From positions 1 through 37,896 of the IMG/VR virus record IMGVR_UViG_3300028800_000198: a stretch of DNA of 37,896 bases. One strand, 5' to 3'. Both the position numbers and the translations under genes were made by a program. The stretch comes from a virus. This document shows, one piece after another, positions 1 to 37,896 of this stretch. A model generated the notes under the pieces. It had not been told where the DNA came from. It saw only the letters and a program-made list of their open reading frames with translations, and searched no databases. Position 1 is the first letter of the stretch. The number at the start of each line of letters is the position of its first letter.

Positions 1-46
1 TTTCGTAGGTTAATTTTGTCGTGCACGACAAAATTAACCTACGAAA
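1..46. repeat. Perfect 46-bp palindrome at contig start (probable fold-back)
   Basis: Bases 1-23 are the exact reverse complement of bases 24-46. The second copy of this region at the right end (from 37771) carries only the right arm and is preceded by unrelated sequence. The left 22 bases are therefore either a fold-back artefact of sequencing or assembly, or a real variant end. I favour the artefact. Confidence 0.85.
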
Positions 47-148
47 AAAGGACAACCCATGTCAGGGATTACCAATATCAACAATATGGCGCCGGAACTG
101 CCGCTTCAGTTTTCTGAAGATTTGCTTTCCACGCCAATGTTTAACCTG
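23..148. repeat. Terminal direct repeat, left copy
   Basis: These 126 bases are identical to 37771-37896. They include the capsid gene ribosome binding site and its first 30 codons, so the end of the window is the same locus read again. The simplest reading is an assembly overlap of a circular or circularly permuted genome of about 37,748 bp, not a biological terminal repeat. Confidence 0.93.
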
Positions 149-10989: not shown

Positions 10990-11958
10990 TCAATTTTCAT
11001 AATCTAAATTAATTACTTTGAAACTAATTGGGCAATGATTAGGTATGTTATATTGCGATCTTATAACAACGCCCTCTCTTTGTTTCCCATTCGAATACAA
11101 GCCTTCTCCTTTTAATTCTAACCCATCTTTTGAAAAGCAATAGCCAGTTTCCAAAATCTTTACGTTAGGGAATTTCATTTCTCTGCTCAAAATCTTAAGC
11201 TCGTCAAAAGAAAAATACCTATGGTTATGAATGTCATAAGCCGAAAACATAAAACCTTCTAGCTCAGAAAGCCCCATAGGGTTGCTCTGAATTTTAGGCC
11301 CGCAAGTTTCCCATTGAATCGTTACGCCCTCTGGTAAATTCTCTTCGACTTTGTATTTTTCAGCCAACAGCCAATAACCGTTATCAGAATTCCTTTCTAA
11401 CTCAAGGTTTCTGGAGCATATGCCAAACGTCCCTTTGTATCGATAAGCAGTCGTCGATGATCCGTCGCATTTTTCGGTAATATAATACGCCTTTCCTACA
11501 AGTGCATCCACAAGATCCGCGTGCATCTGATAATTTAGCTCGTCTGTCTTAGGCAAGAATGCAGGAAACGGGCCTTTTGCTATTCCTTGTAAGTGAGGAG
11601 AGATAGGCTTGTAATATTTCTTTACCCCTAAAAGTTCTGTTAAATCTAAACCAACCTCACCCAACATATAAGTCGCTAATGGCACAATTAAAACTTCACT
11701 AGGAGCCCCCCTAAATCTCTGCATTTTTACGCGCCAATTTGATTTTTCCATGAATTTCAGTTCTTCACTGGGAGGAATAAGGGAATCAGGAAGGTAGACA
11801 GCGCACAAATCCCCCGCTTGGAATTGATCTTTCTTCACGATCCCTTTCCATTTGCCACCCGCTCCACATACCACAGTCGCCGAAACAATGAAATCCGCGT
11901 TCTCGATGAGCTGAAGATCAACAATTTTGCCGACATACACTAAAGGTTTGTAATCCAT
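10990..11958 (-). CDS. RNA ligase, DRB0094/Rnl5-like family
   Basis: 322 residues with an N-terminal OB-like domain (about 1-110) and a C-terminal nucleotidyltransferase domain. Covalent nucleotidyl transferase motifs are intact: motif I TEKCDGSS with Lys163 as the AMP acceptor, motif III GICSRNLEL (179-187), motif IV REGVVIR (Glu295) and motif V SFKVIN (Lys314). The OB-then-ligase order is that of the Deinococcus Rnl5-type enzyme, which seals 3'-OH/5'-phosphate nicks whose 3'-OH strand is RNA. In a phage it may repair RNA cut by host defence, or join RNA to DNA. It heads a leftward unit with two DUF29 genes inside the rightward late block, like an acquired cassette. AGAGGG precedes the ATG. 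Confidence 0.85.
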   Translation of the reverse strand: MDYKPLVYVGKIVDLQLIENADFIVSATVVCGAGGKWKGIVKKDQFQAGDLCAVYLPDSLIPPSEELKFMEKSNWRVKMQRFRGAPSEVLIVPLATYMLGEVGLDLTELLGVKKYYKPISPHLQGIAKGPFPAFLPKTDELNYQMHADLVDALVGKAYYITEKCDGSSTTAYRYKGTFGICSRNLELERNSDNGYWLLAEKYKVEENLPEGVTIQWETCGPKIQSNPMGLSELEGFMFSAYDIHNHRYFSFDELKILSREMKFPNVKILETGYCFSKDGLELKGEGLYSNGKQREGVVIRSQYNIPNHCPISFKVINLDYEN

Positions 11959-30673: not shown

Positions 30674-30963
30674 AAGTTAAAGGAAAAATAGAGAGCATTG
30701 AAAGAATCCGCGAGATAACAGTTGATGATATCTTTTTACAAGATGTTTACGAGAGCGATATTACGGATATGATAAGAGTTATTTTTGGAATCGCTATTTC
30801 AATCGCGACAGAAGAAGCGGTGAAAAAATATTCGCTTAGTTATATAGCTAGCCGAGAAGAATCCAACCTAAAGGACATGGAAGCGACCAAAGAAAAAATA
30901 AAAGACTACGCCCTAGATAAATTATGCGAGATTTTTGGGGTTAAGAATTTAGAGTACATTTAA
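30664..30963 (+). CDS. Hypothetical protein, 99 aa
   Basis: Starts MLVKVKGKIESIERIREITV, with a mixed beta-alpha pattern and a central hydrophobic helix (MIRVIFGIAISIATEEAVKK). The final A of its stop codon is the first base of the terminase ATG, so it is coupled to the packaging gene. It may be a packaging accessory, but no motif shows this. Confidence 0.55.
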   Translation: MLVKVKGKIESIERIREITVDDIFLQDVYESDITDMIRVIFGIAISIATEEAVKKYSLSYIASREESNLKDMEATKEKIKDYALDKLCEIFGVKNLEYI

Positions 30964-32450
30964 TGTCCTTATCCGAAAAACAAATCAAAAGCATTCAAGA
31001 GGCAATCCGACGCTTTAATATTTGGTGTGGCGCGGTTAGATCTGGCAAGACCTTCGCCTCTATTTTAAAGCTCATTGATCTTCTGAAAAATGGGCCTAAA
31101 GGGGATGCAATGGTTGTGGGGGTGAACCGCGAATCGATCCAACGAAACGTTTTGAATTTGCTATTCTCCTTATTAGGCGGTGCGCCCCCCTCTTCTAAAA
31201 CAAACTCCACGAAGGTTTACGGTCGCAATATCTACTTCGTGGGGGCTCATGATGAATCAGCAGTTAGAGCAATCCAAGGTTCTACCCTCTCGCTTTCCTA
31301 TGTCGATGAGATCACCTGTATCCCTGCGCCATTTTGGAAAATGCTGGGCTCTCGTCTTAGCGTACCGGGCGCACAACTCTTAGGCACGACCAACCCAGAA
31401 GGCCCAAGCCACTGGTTCAAGAAAGAGTTCTTAGACAGAACCGACCTGGATCTGATTTGCTGGAATTTCACGCTCGATGATAACCCTTCTCTTGACGAAG
31501 CTTATAAGAATAATCTAAAAAAAGAGTATACTGGGATGTGGTATAAACGCTACATTCTAGGGGAGTGGGCGGTTGCCCACGGTCTAATTTACGACAACTT
31601 TGATGAGTTAAACGTCTATGAAGAGCCGCAAAATCAACCAAATTACTATATCGTGGGAATCGATTACGGTACTAGCAATGCTACTGCTGCCGTTCTATGC
31701 GCCGTGACGCCTACCAGATGGCCACAGATTAGAGTAGTCGAAGAGTATTATTACGATTCCGTGATAAAAGGAAGGTCTAAGACAGACGCAGAGCTAGCGG
31801 ATGATATTTATAGATTCGTAGAGTATAAGACGGTAAGAGCAATCTATGTCGACCCCTCAGCAGCAAGCCTAAAGCTGGAGCTAAGAAACCGCAATCTCCC
31901 TGTATTGGATGCGAAAAACGATGTACTCGAAGGGATCAAGGTTACCTCTAAATTCATCGCTGGCAAAAACCTTGTTGTCCATAAATCATGCCGAACTCTG
32001 ATTGATGTCATTCAATCTTATTCATGGGATCCAAAAGCAGCAGATAGGGGTTTAGACAAACCTTTAAAAGAGCATGAGCATATTTGCGTTTCAGGAGATA
32101 CCGAAGTATTAACGGTTTCTGGTTATGAAAAAATTAAAGAATTAGAAAAACATCGCAGAGGAGGTATAATAAATTTTAATAAAGGTTTGTATAGACTGGA
32201 GTATTCTATATATAAAAATGTTTTTTTGACTAAAAGAAATGTAGAAGTCTGGTGTTTAGAATTAGAAGATGGGAAAAAATTGATTGCTACGCCTGACCAT
32301 AAAGTTATGACAGCCAACGGAATGAAGATGTTGCAAGAATTGACTCTTTGCGATATGATAATTACATGCGATATCAAGAACATTTCGGAAGAAAATTTTA
32401 TCAATGCAAAAGAACGGGTTATTGGATCTCTACCAATTACCCAAGAGTAA
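30963..32450 (+). CDS. terL: Terminase large subunit, N-terminal part fused to N-intein
   Basis: 495 residues. The first 374 are terminase: Walker A GAVRSGKT (23-30), Walker B LSYVDE with Asp115 and Glu116, coupling motif GTTNPEG (141-147), nuclease motif I VGIDYG (Asp234), motif II IYVDPS (Asp297). From Cys375 the sequence is an intein: CVSGDTEVLT (block A) and ATPDHKVMT (block B, with Thr443-x-x-His446). The frame closes at 32450 without a C-terminal splicing motif, and the missing nuclease motif III is encoded at 33030. This protein can only give active terminase after trans-splicing with the product of 32898-33179. The last 28 or so residues are coded where the HNH gene overlaps and may not be intein proper. 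Confidence 0.95.
   Translation: MSLSEKQIKSIQEAIRRFNIWCGAVRSGKTFASILKLIDLLKNGPKGDAMVVGVNRESIQRNVLNLLFSLLGGAPPSSKTNSTKVYGRNIYFVGAHDESAVRAIQGSTLSLSYVDEITCIPAPFWKMLGSRLSVPGAQLLGTTNPEGPSHWFKKEFLDRTDLDLICWNFTLDDNPSLDEAYKNNLKKEYTGMWYKRYILGEWAVAHGLIYDNFDELNVYEEPQNQPNYYIVGIDYGTSNATAAVLCAVTPTRWPQIRVVEEYYYDSVIKGRSKTDAELADDIYRFVEYKTVRAIYVDPSAASLKLELRNRNLPVLDAKNDVLEGIKVTSKFIAGKNLVVHKSCRTLIDVIQSYSWDPKAADRGLDKPLKEHEHICVSGDTEVLTVSGYEKIKELEKHRRGGIINFNKGLYRLEYSIYKNVFLTKRNVEVWCLELEDGKKLIATPDHKVMTANGMKMLQELTLCDMIITCDIKNISEENFINAKERVIGSLPITQE
32085..32447 (+). other. N-terminal split-intein half (coding segment)
   Basis: Codes for 121 residues beginning at Cys375 of the upper terminase part. Block A and block B residues needed for the first acyl shift are intact. 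Base composition turns more AT-rich at this junction, consistent with later insertion. The fold-forming part probably ends near LCDMIITC, and the remainder is an overlap-encoded tail. Confidence 0.88.
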
Positions 32451-32962
32451 GAGCTCATACTTGGGTATGGGAAAATTTAAAAGAGAAAGTTCCTAAAGGA
32501 ATGCATTTGCACCATATTGATGGCGACAAATCTAACAATTCTATAGACAACTTAGAGTCAGTTTCTCCAAAAAAACACCTAGAATTGCATGCATCTCCAC
32601 TAAGAACGGAAAAAAGAAAGCAACACGTTGAAAAAATTAGACATTTAACAAAGGCATGGCATGCCAGTGAAGAAGGAAGAAGGTGGCATTCTAATCACGC
32701 ATACAATTCCCTTCCGACAGTTATGGGCGTTGAATATGATTTAACATGCGAACAATGCCAAATAAAATTTAAGGGCAAAAAATCAGATCAAAAATTTTGC
32801 TCTAATGCGTGCAAGTCTAAATTTAGAAGAGATGCAGGTTTTGATGACATAGAAATCAAATGCATTTTTTGCGAAACGAAATTTAAAAGGAATAAGTATG
32901 CAAAAGGAAGATTTTGCTCTAAAAGCTGTAGCTATAAAAAGTATTGGCAGAGTAGAAAATGA
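32366..32962 (+). CDS. HNH homing endonuclease nested between split-intein halves
   Basis: 198 residues from the ATG at 32366; a TTG at 32348 could add six. Reading frame differs from both terminase parts. Residues 27-65 hold the HNH core: RVRAHTWVWENL, GMHLHHIDGD (46-54), NNSIDNLESV. Two Cys clusters follow, CEQC-x15-FCSNAC and CIFC-x15-FCSKSC, each a zinc-finger-like knuckle for DNA binding. It overlaps the N-part by 85 bases and the C-part by 65. It probably cuts terminase genes lacking the intein, spreading the insertion. No clear Shine-Dalgarno precedes its start, so expression may be low. Confidence 0.9.
   Translation: MRYQEHFGRKFYQCKRTGYWISTNYPRVRAHTWVWENLKEKVPKGMHLHHIDGDKSNNSIDNLESVSPKKHLELHASPLRTEKRKQHVEKIRHLTKAWHASEEGRRWHSNHAYNSLPTVMGVEYDLTCEQCQIKFKGKKSDQKFCSNACKSKFRRDAGFDDIEIKCIFCETKFKRNKYAKGRFCSKSCSYKKYWQSRK
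32886..32891 (+). promoter_or_regulatory. Internal ribosome binding site for the C-terminal terminase part
   Basis: AAAGGA, 6 bases before the ATG at 32898, lies inside the HNH coding sequence. It supports independent translation of the C-intein/terminase protein from the same mRNA, not a frameshift product. Confidence 0.7.
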
Positions 32963-33029
32963 AGATGTTTATTGTTTAGCAACTGAAACGAATGGCAATT
33001 TTATAGCAAATGGCATAGTTGTGTCGAAT
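32898..33029 (+). other. C-terminal split-intein half (coding segment)
   Basis: 132 bases, 44 residues, ending in Asn before the catalytic +1 Cys (33030-33032). Its small size is typical of naturally split C-inteins. Combined with the N-half, it makes a 165-residue intein without an endonuclease domain. Confidence 0.88.
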
Positions 33030-33179
33030 TGCGACGCTCTTCGCTATGCCATCTACTCCAACTTCCCCACAGGCCAATTTTATGTCACTGGCGAAAACAT
33101 GACCATTGATCAGATTCGGCAACAAGCTTATGGCGACGAGCCGTTTATTCTAAATCCGGGGGCAGGGGGGTATTGTTAA
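32898..33179 (+). CDS. terL: Terminase large subunit, C-terminal part preceded by C-intein
   Basis: 93 residues. The first 44 are the C-intein: DVYCLATETNGNFIANG (block F) then IVVSN (block G). The rest is terminase C-extein starting at Cys45: CDALRYAIYSNFPTG, ending in NPGAGGYC. Asp46 supplies nuclease motif III, matching the H-x-x-DALRY motif when joined to EHEHI from the N-part. Trans-splicing gives about 374 + 49 = 423 residues, usual size for this terminase family. Block G lacks the usual penultimate His (Ser instead), and block F has Gly in place of one His, so splicing kinetics may differ. Ribosome binding site AAAGGA at 32886. Confidence 0.93.
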   Translation: MQKEDFALKAVAIKSIGRVENEDVYCLATETNGNFIANGIVVSNCDALRYAIYSNFPTGQFYVTGENMTIDQIRQQAYGDEPFILNPGAGGYC

Positions 33180-33711: not shown

Positions 33712-35802
33712 GTGAATTTTTTCTTCACACGTTTGTTTTACAATAAAATCTTTTTTATTATATTGTGTGATTCAAGAATAATTTATGGTAATGTCATCGG
33801 CTCATACGGAAACGCTTACTATTCTGGCAACTACATAGATCCAACGGATGTCGGTGCTAAAAACATCCGCCAATTAATGGATCAGTTTTACCAGTCCTCT
33901 TACCCGCAAAATGCTGCCTATTGGGTGCAGGCTGCCATTGACAAAAGGTTCAAGGCTGGCGATCAGTCTCTTTGGTCTATGCTCTATGGAGAAAATCAAT
34001 ATTCGCAAAACAGAAAGTTCTTTTTTAATTTAATAAGACGTCAAATCAATATGATTTGCGGGCATCAGCGTAGAAATAGAAAGTCCACCATCACTTTACC
34101 ATTACACGACGAAGACGGATTAGCAGATGATTACAACGCCGTTTTAAAATGGTGCGAGGAGCGCGATGGATTTCAAGAGTATTTGTCACAAACTTTTGAA
34201 AATGCAGTGGATTGCGGCACTGGTCTTCTCCATATGTATCCTGATTACGTTAATGATCCTATCAGTGGGGACCTTTATACGGATTGCGTTGCACCCTTTA
34301 ACTATTTGATCGACCCGTTTACCCGCAAGATGGATCTCTCTGACTGCAATGGCATATGGCGAAGAAAATGGGTCACTAAAGAAGTGGCCAAAACCCTACT
34401 TCCTTTGCAAGACAAAGAGATCGACAAGTTTAAACCTCAAGGTGCAAAAGACGGTAGATTCCCCCTACAAGCCGAACTAATCAACATCAACACTTCCCAA
34501 CTCTTCACCTACGACGAATTCTATTATAGATCGACGCGCGAAGCCACCATGATTATCGATCCCAAGTCGGGTGAATCGATGGAGTGGGAAAAAGAAGACG
34601 ATGAGCTAGAAGATGAAATGCAAATGGTTCTTCGCGCTCAACCTTGGCTAAGAGTCAAGAAAATGCAGATCCCAACGGTTAAACTTTGCATCTGCGTAGG
34701 CAATACACCTCTTTACCATGGTCCTAACCTCCTAGGCACTGATGGCTATCCCATGACCCAAGTTGGCTGTTATATAGAACCTGACATTCAAGCATACGCG
34801 TGGAAACAGCAAGGAATTATTAGGGGCCTCCGTGATGCGCAATATTTATACAACTCCCGCGTTTGTATTATGGAAGATATATTACGGTCGCAAATTAATT
34901 CAGGTTGGGTTTATCCGATTGATGCTGTAGTTGATCCAAAGGCCTTCCGCCAAACAGGACAAGGGTTTTTAGTTCCTTTAAAGGCAGGACATACAGCAGC
35001 CGAGCTCCAGCGAATTGAACCGCCTGGAATCCCTCAATCCATGATGGATTTAGCCCGTATGCTGCAAGAAGATATGACCGCTATCTCTGGCGTTAACGAA
35101 GAGCTTCTAGGGGCTGCAACAGACGATAAGGCGGGTATCCTTTCAATGCTGAGACAGGGCGCGGGGCTCACAACGCTGCAGACGATTTTCGATAAGCTAG
35201 ATTATTCCCAAAGGCTCTATGGACAAATCCGCATCCAAGCGATTAGAAAGAATTTCTCGAAGGGCAAAATAGCAAGCATTCTGCAGAAAGAAGCCGACCC
35301 CCGATTTTTCAGCTCTCGATCTCTCAAATACTCAGTCGTTGTAGAAGAAGGAAATTACTCAGCCACACAGCGTCAAACTGAATTACAGCAGCTCTTATAT
35401 TTCCGCGAACTTGGTATGCCGATCCCAGATAAGAGCATCATGAAAAAAGCTATCATCACGGACAAACAAGAGATCTTATATGACATGGAAGAGCAGAACG
35501 CTCAACAGCAGCAAGCGCAACAAGCACAATCACAGATGCAGGCCCAAAAAGACCAGGCAGACGTGATGGCTAAAGTTGCTAAGTCAAGATTAGATCTAGC
35601 AGGCGAGAAAGAAAAATTCGCTCGCATTGATGAGATCGAAGCATCCGCAGAGCAAAAGCAAACGGGAGCTGATCTTGATCTAGTTCGCATGATGATAGAA
35701 CTCGAGGATATGCAGTTAAACAACTTCAGATCTTCTTTCGAGATGGCACAGGCCATTAAACAAGCAAACCAACCTCAACCTACGCAGGAGAAATTAACAT
35801 GA
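33712..35802 (+). CDS. Portal protein, P22-like
   Basis: Up to 696 residues; the body matches P22-type portals, with QRRNRKSTITLPLHD, DCGTGLLHMYPD, a WRRKWVTKEVA segment, and the AYAWKQQGIIRGLRDAQYLY helix that forms the crown/stem side. The C-terminus is Gln/Ala-rich coiled coil (about 595-640). The start is unclear: the GTG at 33712 precedes the predicted transcription start, conserved-looking sequence begins at GNAYYSGNYIDPTD, and the ATGs at 33785 and 33791 are in another frame that stops at 33838. The first in-frame ATG is at 33877, which would lose conserved sequence. A single indel or non-standard start near 33790 is likely. Confidence 0.88.
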   Translation: MNFFFTRLFYNKIFFIILCDSRIIYGNVIGSYGNAYYSGNYIDPTDVGAKNIRQLMDQFYQSSYPQNAAYWVQAAIDKRFKAGDQSLWSMLYGENQYSQNRKFFFNLIRRQINMICGHQRRNRKSTITLPLHDEDGLADDYNAVLKWCEERDGFQEYLSQTFENAVDCGTGLLHMYPDYVNDPISGDLYTDCVAPFNYLIDPFTRKMDLSDCNGIWRRKWVTKEVAKTLLPLQDKEIDKFKPQGAKDGRFPLQAELININTSQLFTYDEFYYRSTREATMIIDPKSGESMEWEKEDDELEDEMQMVLRAQPWLRVKKMQIPTVKLCICVGNTPLYHGPNLLGTDGYPMTQVGCYIEPDIQAYAWKQQGIIRGLRDAQYLYNSRVCIMEDILRSQINSGWVYPIDAVVDPKAFRQTGQGFLVPLKAGHTAAELQRIEPPGIPQSMMDLARMLQEDMTAISGVNEELLGAATDDKAGILSMLRQGAGLTTLQTIFDKLDYSQRLYGQIRIQAIRKNFSKGKIASILQKEADPRFFSSRSLKYSVVVEEGNYSATQRQTELQQLLYFRELGMPIPDKSIMKKAIITDKQEILYDMEEQNAQQQQAQQAQSQMQAQKDQADVMAKVAKSRLDLAGEKEKFARIDEIEASAEQKQTGADLDLVRMMIELEDMQLNNFRSSFEMAQAIKQANQPQPTQEKLT
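33733..33761 (+). promoter_or_regulatory. Predicted late promoter for the portal-scaffold-capsid block
   Basis: TTGTTT (33733-33738), 17-base spacer, TATTAT (33756-33761). Transcription would start near 33768, downstream of the GTG at 33712, which argues that the portal start is later than that GTG. A perfect TATAAT lies on the opposite strand at 33762-33757, with only a weak -35, for the leftward membrane gene. Confidence 0.55.
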
Positions 35803-37621: not shown

Positions 37622-37806
37622 TTAATCTTAACTCTGCGCTGATTTATATATTAAATTGATTATAAGTTGGCGCGGATAGTAACATAAAATTAGCATAACA
37701 GGGCTTAGCTAGTCCACTCTTTTTGGTTGTTCACGGGTTCACCGCCGTAGGCTGATTGTGCCATCGCCAAGCACGACAAAATTAACCTACGAAAAAAGGA
37801 CAACCC
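37622..37806 (+). promoter_or_regulatory. Leader between scaffold and capsid genes
   Basis: About 185 bases without a gene up to the capsid ATG at 37807 (equivalent to position 59). A weak promoter may be present: TTGATT (37656-37661), 18 bases, TAACAT (37680-37685). The remaining sequence has a short ACGG/CCGT hairpin around 37733-37748 but no strong terminator. It could be a capsid-specific promoter and leader. Confidence 0.3.
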
Positions 37807-37896
37807 ATGTCAGGGATTACCAATATCAACAATATGGCGCCGGAACTGCCGCTTCAGTTTTCTGAAGATTTGCTTTCCACGCCAATGTTTAACCTG
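37771..37896. repeat. Terminal direct repeat, right copy (start of capsid gene)
   Basis: Identical to bases 23-148. It includes the first 30 codons of the major capsid gene from ATG 37807. It closes the circle and is not a second gene. Confidence 0.93.

What the first reader, a model, noticed from the sequence alone, without database searches (positions are those of the whole stretch)
32076..33053. Intein insertion sits at the catalytic nuclease motif III of the terminase
Joining the N-extein end EHEHI to the C-extein CDALRY recreates the H-x-x-DALRY motif that carries the third metal-binding Asp of terminase nuclease. Inteins commonly choose such invariant sites, because precise removal is then required and loss is hard. 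The Asp would be absent until splicing, so the nuclease would be off until the two parts meet, a possible timing switch for packaging.
Basis: partly seen in the sequence, partly recalled or inferred. Interest (0 to 1): 0.7.

Follow-up and report, generated by a model that had tools for sequence, protein, structure and literature searches.

The report
Split terminase intein with overlapping endonuclease
A phage's DNA-packaging enzyme gene is cut in two inside its DNA-cutting active site by a protein-splicing element (a split intein), with a mobile DNA-cutting enzyme gene packed in overlapping frames between the halves; the same layout recurs in many phages and suggests how split inteins arise.

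Summary
TerL codons 1-374 end in ...EHEHI at 32084; an intein N-half follows (32085-32450); the C-half ends at 33029, before CDALRY. Joining the flanks restores H-x-x-D, which aligns with solved D6E terminase and is kept in empty-site relatives. The intein is split: N-part ORF, an HNH endonuclease ORF in another frame with its own ATG (32366-32962), and a C-part with its own ATG (32898) and Shine-Dalgarno. It is the only terL in a record with a terminal repeat, so trans-splicing is the best reading. Related inteins at this motif occur in phages of many hosts. Where a full endonuclease is present its frame relative to the C-intein is constant (48 of 49), but the intein frame is in one of two states: still open through the endonuclease (overprinted, disordered linker), or decayed with separate starts (split; this window, Lactobacillus phage CL2, a Leuconostoc genome contig, a Vibrio phage). 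Endonuclease-less members among the split ones are often contiguous again. The proposed timing switch has no support: the ORFs overlap, and relatives lack the split or the intein. Fractured genes and out-of-frame HNH elements are known separately; the overlapping combination is a new variant, though one relevant preprint could not be read.

The parts
30963..32084 (+). TerL N-extein (374 aa): ATPase domain plus nuclease up to motif III His (codon 32079-32081)
32085..32450 (+). N-intein half (C1 at 32085-32087, block B T-x-x-H as ATPDH) with a tail that overlaps the HEN; stop 32448-32450
32366..32962 (+). HNH_3 endonuclease (198 aa, two zinc knuckles), -1 frame relative to C-intein, start Met kept in relatives
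32885..32891 (+). Shine-Dalgarno AAAAGGA, 6 nt before the C-part ATG
   Evidence: dG -5.6, shuffle p 0.04
32897..32900 (+). HEN Tyr178 codon TAT (N-K-Y motif) whose last two bases plus the next G form the C-part ATG (32898-32900)
32898..33029 (+). C-intein half (44 aa, ends VVSN)
33030..33179 (+). TerL C-extein (49 aa): Cys+1, motif III Asp codon 33033-33035, C-terminal end
33712..35802 (+). P22-like portal protein next to terL (context)

Best explanation
The terminase large-subunit gene is broken at nuclease motif III (H-I|C-D) by a split intein. The two TerL parts are made separately (the C-part from its own Shine-Dalgarno/ATG inside the HNH gene), the intein halves bind and trans-splice, and the joined TerL regains H-x-x-D. 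The HNH ORF, made from its own ATG, is a homing endonuclease expected to cut intein-less terL at this conserved site and so spread the element. Shown: sequences, frames, candidate starts, homology, recurrence. Inferred: trans-splicing, homing, and the route: an intein carrying the HNH gene in the -1 frame first stayed open through it (overprinted), then lost that open frame once an internal start (often at the N-K-Y zinc-knuckle codons) could make the C-half.
For: Both intein halves and motifs. terL has a single hit in six frames of the window, which has a 126-bp terminal repeat. HEN frame relative to C-intein is the same in 48 of 49 HEN-bearing inteins with a located N-half, exception L122. 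In 8 of 20 distinct split inteins the N and C parts lie in different frames, so the C-part needs its own start. Synonymous-shuffle test: 22 distinct contiguous loci have 0 stops in the intein frame (about 52 expected in all; 14 of 22 with P<0.05), third frame as expected; 16 distinct split loci match expectation (window 10 vs 9.3). HEN codon position 3 carries excess substitutions in 10 of 11 diverged pairs (16 pairs tried, 5 with 0-1 differences). Tree: among 37 distinct HEN-bearing rows one split/contiguous change; 10 over 61 rows. Brochothrix phage BL3 and Lactobacillus phage CL2 records have the split terL. HEN model mean pLDDT 92.5 from Met1; in overprinted L070 both splicing parts are at about 90 while residues 137-271 are below 50.
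Against: No splicing or cleavage data. Penultimate intein residue is Ser, not His (Ser in 26 and Lys in 22 of 76 inteins compared). The HEN ATG has no visible Shine-Dalgarno (by eye). The window's intein has no close relative (best 50% identity). ATG at the N-K-Y codon is in 10 of 17 distinct split but also 2 of 14 contiguous loci (p 0.024, not corrected for kinship). The tree root is arbitrary, so the direction of split/contiguous change is inferred.
Confidence: 0.88

Rival explanations
1. A contiguous intein-HEN-intein protein made by programmed ribosomal frameshifting (-1 into the HEN, then back into the C-intein).
For: Frame 0 to HEN is a -1 step, and a phased slippery heptamer A AAT TTT lies at 32393, near the start of HNH homology.
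Against: Needs a second shift. HEN has its own kept Met upstream of the heptamer. In L053, L087 and L108 the N-part stops and HEN starts downstream in the same frame. HEN-reduced L060 and L077 stay split.
Confidence: 0.05
2. A self-splicing RNA intron rather than protein splicing.
For: Exiguobacterium phage EauM-23 has the same motif broken by a related HEN with no intein halves seen (L142).
Against: No Rfam match in the window or in four other phage loci including L142; intein motifs on both sides in frame with both exteins.
Confidence: 0.03
3. A timing switch: separation of the halves is kept so that the nuclease is off until late in infection.
For: The catalytic Asp is absent from the N-part; the Mic1 paper proposes control of packaging by its TerL inteins (PMC7156551, passages).
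Against: 47 of 49 nearest relatives lack any intein; HEN-less members near split ones are contiguous; overlapping ORFs argue for joint expression.
Confidence: 0.05
4. A decaying pseudogene or assembly artefact.
For: Ten stops in the intein frame within the HEN.
Against: The three-ORF layout recurs in independent records including the CL2 phage record; terL is single in the record.
Confidence: 0.02

Closest known systems
Fractured genes (Dassa et al. 2009, content recalled; the paper is not held; cited in PMC11766414, passages seen)
   Same: Enzyme gene broken by a split intein with an endonuclease gene between the halves, in phage-like sequences
   Different: Here TerL motif III; HNH_3 with two zinc knuckles, not Vsr-like; HEN overlaps both halves in a constant -1 frame; overprinted contiguous relatives exist
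ShiLan element (PMC11855218; abstract, Results part 1, Discussion and passages read)
   Same: HNH endonuclease with zinc fingers hidden out of frame in an open host frame
   Different: ShiLan is reported not to be an intein; here intein splicing halves flank the HEN
TerL inteins of mycobacteriophages (PMC5050341, passages)
   Same: TerL as intein host, insertion at functional motifs
   Different: All those lie in the ATPase domain; this one is at nuclease motif III
Microcystis phage Mic1 TerL nuclease-domain intein (PMC7156551 passages; sequence)
   Same: Same junction H-L|C-D
   Different: Contiguous mini-intein without HEN
AceL-TerL / GOS-TerL split inteins (PMC11766414, passages)
   Same: Naturally split inteins in TerL
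   Different: Atypical short N-half (25-37 aa); here the N-half has blocks A and B; their insertion site was not checked

Membership tests
Inteins (HINT splicing domain) | N- and C-terminal splicing motifs: Cys1, T-x-x-H, C-terminal Asn, nucleophile +1 | tested here: met
   relative L070 models as HINT, best Foldseek hit gp41-1 intein 6qaz, E 8e-08
Split inteins | Halves encoded by separate ORFs | tested here: met
Split inteins | Trans-splicing activity | not testable with these tools
   no wet experiment
Fractured genes (recalled definition) | Free-standing endonuclease gene between the split-intein halves | tested here: met
   but it overlaps both halves
Fractured genes (recalled definition) | Vsr-like endonuclease (recalled: about half of the loci) | tested here: not met
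   HNH_3 match; not required for membership
ShiLan-type hidden HNH | Host frame open through the HNH gene | tested here: not met
   window has 10 stops there; met in 22 distinct contiguous relatives
Large intein with in-frame endonuclease domain | HEN in the intein's own frame | tested here: not met
Terminase nuclease motif III | H-x-x-D aligned to a solved terminase | tested here: met
Group I or II intron | Rfam intron model match | tested here: not met
   gathering threshold
HNH homing endonuclease | Site-specific cleavage of the empty allele | not testable with these tools
   HNH_3 in 15 of 15 aligned members; nearest fold I-HmuI, weak E 0.024

The most novel reading that the evidence does not exclude
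Inteins at terminase motif III form a family in which the homing endonuclease is not a domain but a separate gene overprinted in the -1 frame of the intein. While the intein frame stays open the HEN's shadow serves as a disordered linker; once the zinc-knuckle codons give a Shine-Dalgarno/ATG for the C-half, the shadow frame decays and a split intein is born; loss of the HEN can fuse the halves again. This would be a direct, reversible route between contiguous and split inteins.
Probability: 0.5. Interest if true: 0.75.

Novelty: new variant of a known kind. Interest (0 to 1): 0.6.

Why it matters
It puts contiguous, overprinted, split and endonuclease-less states of related inteins at one site, so the origin of split inteins can be tested in laboratory phages. 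It also offers many uncharacterised candidate split inteins, and it shows annotation gaps: in Lactobacillus phage CL2 the TerL C-part that completes the nuclease is not annotated.

Tried and rejected
Searches with the N-intein half and with the HEN alone in viral contigs found nothing usable. Rfam gave no intron. A frameshift reading was considered because of the slippery heptamer and rejected. A first tree used wrong intein starts for six loci (five of them in the deduplicated tree); these were corrected and one unlocatable locus (L104) dropped before the tree. Foldseek for the HEN gave nothing at E <= 0.001.

Rows dropped before counts: of 96 loci examined (71 viral pattern hits, 15 genome hits, window, 9 added by hand from hits), 19 had no located N-half (7 viral, 12 genome); L068 was skipped as cut at the locus edge, leaving 76; 75 after L104. 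Near-copies were then dropped for distinct counts (11; 14). The pattern demands N-C-D-A-L-R-Y-A (Leu may be Phe), so the C-junction census is by construction; the HEN frame is not. The contiguous class is defined by its open frame, so zero stops there is by definition and only the expected number is informative. In the N-K-Y count, tallied by hand, L122 was left out (frame not matching) and L078 matched at another motif.

Full report
What is there. The window is an IMG/VR virus record whose last 126 bases repeat bases 23-148, so it is probably complete; a TerL profile finds one terL in six frames. terL starts at 30963. Its ORF ends at 32450, but after codon 374 (...DKPLKEHEHI) it runs into an intein: Cys1 at 32085, block B ATPDH. 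A second ORF in the same frame, 32898-33179, holds the intein C-half (...IANGIVVSN) and the TerL end CDALRY.... Between them, in another frame and overlapping both, lies a 198-aa HNH_3 endonuclease ORF with two zinc knuckles, 32366-32962. The C-part has AAAAGGA six bases before its ATG.

The site. The joined TerL aligns to the solved D6E terminase (5oe8, E 7e-64) with H-I-C-D over H-Q-L-D; a profile of 15 intein-less relatives gives the same alignment, with motif III Asp invariant and His nearly so. In 49 relatives from viral contigs, 47 have H-x-x-D at the junction and 2 have D-x-x-D; 47 of 49 have no intein and two (L045, L047) have contiguous inteins at exactly this site. G20c work shows D294, D347 and D429 mutants with the lowest nuclease activity (PMC5389553, passages).

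A family at one motif. A degenerate pattern for N-C-D-A-L-R-Y-A found 71 viral stretches and 15 genome stretches. With the window and nine loci added by hand from other hits, 97 less one shared count gives 96 loci examined; 77 have a locatable N-half. Of 75 with a mapped first Cys, 67 lie at Hx|xD, 4 at H|xxD, 3 at DDx|CD, and one (Acinetobacter phage Highwayman) just after the Asp and Ala. Hosts or sources named by records include Leuconostoc (L127), Patescibacteria (L125) and Acidobacteria (L128), Lactobacillus and Brochothrix phages, Tetrasphaera, Vibrio and Acinetobacter phages, and a Methanomassiliicoccales virus. Microcystis phage Mic1 has a contiguous mini-intein at H-L|C-D, already reported as a nuclease-domain intein (PMC7156551, passages).

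Two states of one layout. Where a full HEN is present, its frame relative to the C-intein is the same in 48 of 49 (exception L122), and its stop lies 4-112 nt before the C-junction in distinct loci. In 22 distinct contiguous loci the intein frame runs open through the HEN: 0 stops where synonymous shuffling of the HEN expects about 52 in total (14 of 22 individually P<0.05; the other 8 are not informative alone), while the third frame is as expected. In 16 distinct split loci, the window included (10 vs 9.3), stops match expectation, so that stretch is no longer held open. HEN-frame third positions carry excess substitutions in 10 of 11 diverged pairs, in both classes (five further pairs had 0-1 differences, and the one diverged pair without excess, L056/L074, has only six). 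In the contiguous L070, AlphaFold gives both splicing parts pLDDT of about 90 and residues 137-271 below 50; Foldseek finds gp41-1 and other inteins. The window HEN models at mean pLDDT 92.5 from its ATG-coded Met.

How the C-half is started. In 8 of 20 distinct split loci the N and C parts lie in different frames, so the C-half needs its own start. In the window the ATG is formed by the HEN Tyr178 codon of an N-K-Y motif; this holds in 10 of 17 distinct split loci and 2 of 14 contiguous ones (Fisher p 0.024, not corrected for kinship). Most other split loci have ATT there and other candidate starts. The N-K-Y motif is close to invariant in the HEN alignment (N176 nearly invariant, Y178 invariant), so the zinc-knuckle codons look like a ready source of a ribosome site. 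That last point is inference.

Tree. On 61 distinct inteins (N plus C splicing parts, 135 columns), HEN-bearing rows (21 contiguous, 16 split) need one change of state; all rows need 10, because HEN-less rows near split ones are contiguous, such as L091 beside L053 and L088 beside L105, and L083 and L096, which keep a zinc-finger remnant out of frame. HEN-reduced but still split forms exist: L060, L077, L113 and Brochothrix phage BL3. The remnants argue that HEN loss can re-fuse the halves; the root, and so the direction overall, is not fixed. Several branches are long or open.

Mechanism and rivals. Best reading: trans-splicing of two TerL parts, with an HNH homing endonuclease riding in the gap. 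It rests on phage records with the same split and on a single terL; no experiment was run. Frameshifting, RNA splicing and decay are disfavoured for the reasons given in the rivals. A regulatory switch is possible in principle, but nothing in the distribution favours it.

Priority. Fractured genes (Dassa 2009, recalled; not held) already describe split inteins with endonuclease genes between the halves. ShiLan (PMC11855218) describes out-of-frame HNH genes, in a methylase and not in an intein. Searches for intein with out-of-frame, alternative-frame or overlapping HNH returned only ShiLan as relevant in their listings. A preprint on non-canonical actinobacteriophage inteins (10.1101/2025.01.02.630785) is not held and may describe the overprinted state. 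I therefore call this a new variant of a known kind.

Noticed in passing
L142 (Exiguobacterium phage EauM-23) 2258-3219: TerL is broken at the same motif by a related HNH gene with no intein halves seen and no Rfam intron match; could be an unrecognised intron or a broken gene.
   Followed up: partly
L141 (Pseudomonas phage PAE1) 663-2882: Intact TerL (DHIADCIRY) followed directly by a free-standing relative of the same HNH gene, as if poised next to its target.
   Followed up: no
L146 vs L051 (Acinetobacter phages BP10 and Highwayman): A related HNH gene is free-standing upstream of the terminase genes in BP10 but nested out of frame inside a terL intein in Highwayman.
   Followed up: no
L138 2580-2771 (Lactobacillus phage CL2): The TerL C-part needed to complete the nuclease is not annotated in the record; only N-part and HNH are.
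   Followed up: yes
window 23-148 and 37771-37896: 126-bp direct repeat at the ends, consistent with a complete circular or terminally redundant record.
   Followed up: partly
window 10990-11958 (-): RNA ligase (PHROG 968, E 7e-40) on the opposite strand.
   Followed up: no
L122, L063, L092: HEN in the other alternate frame relative to the C-intein, a possible second origin of the overprinted layout.
   Followed up: no
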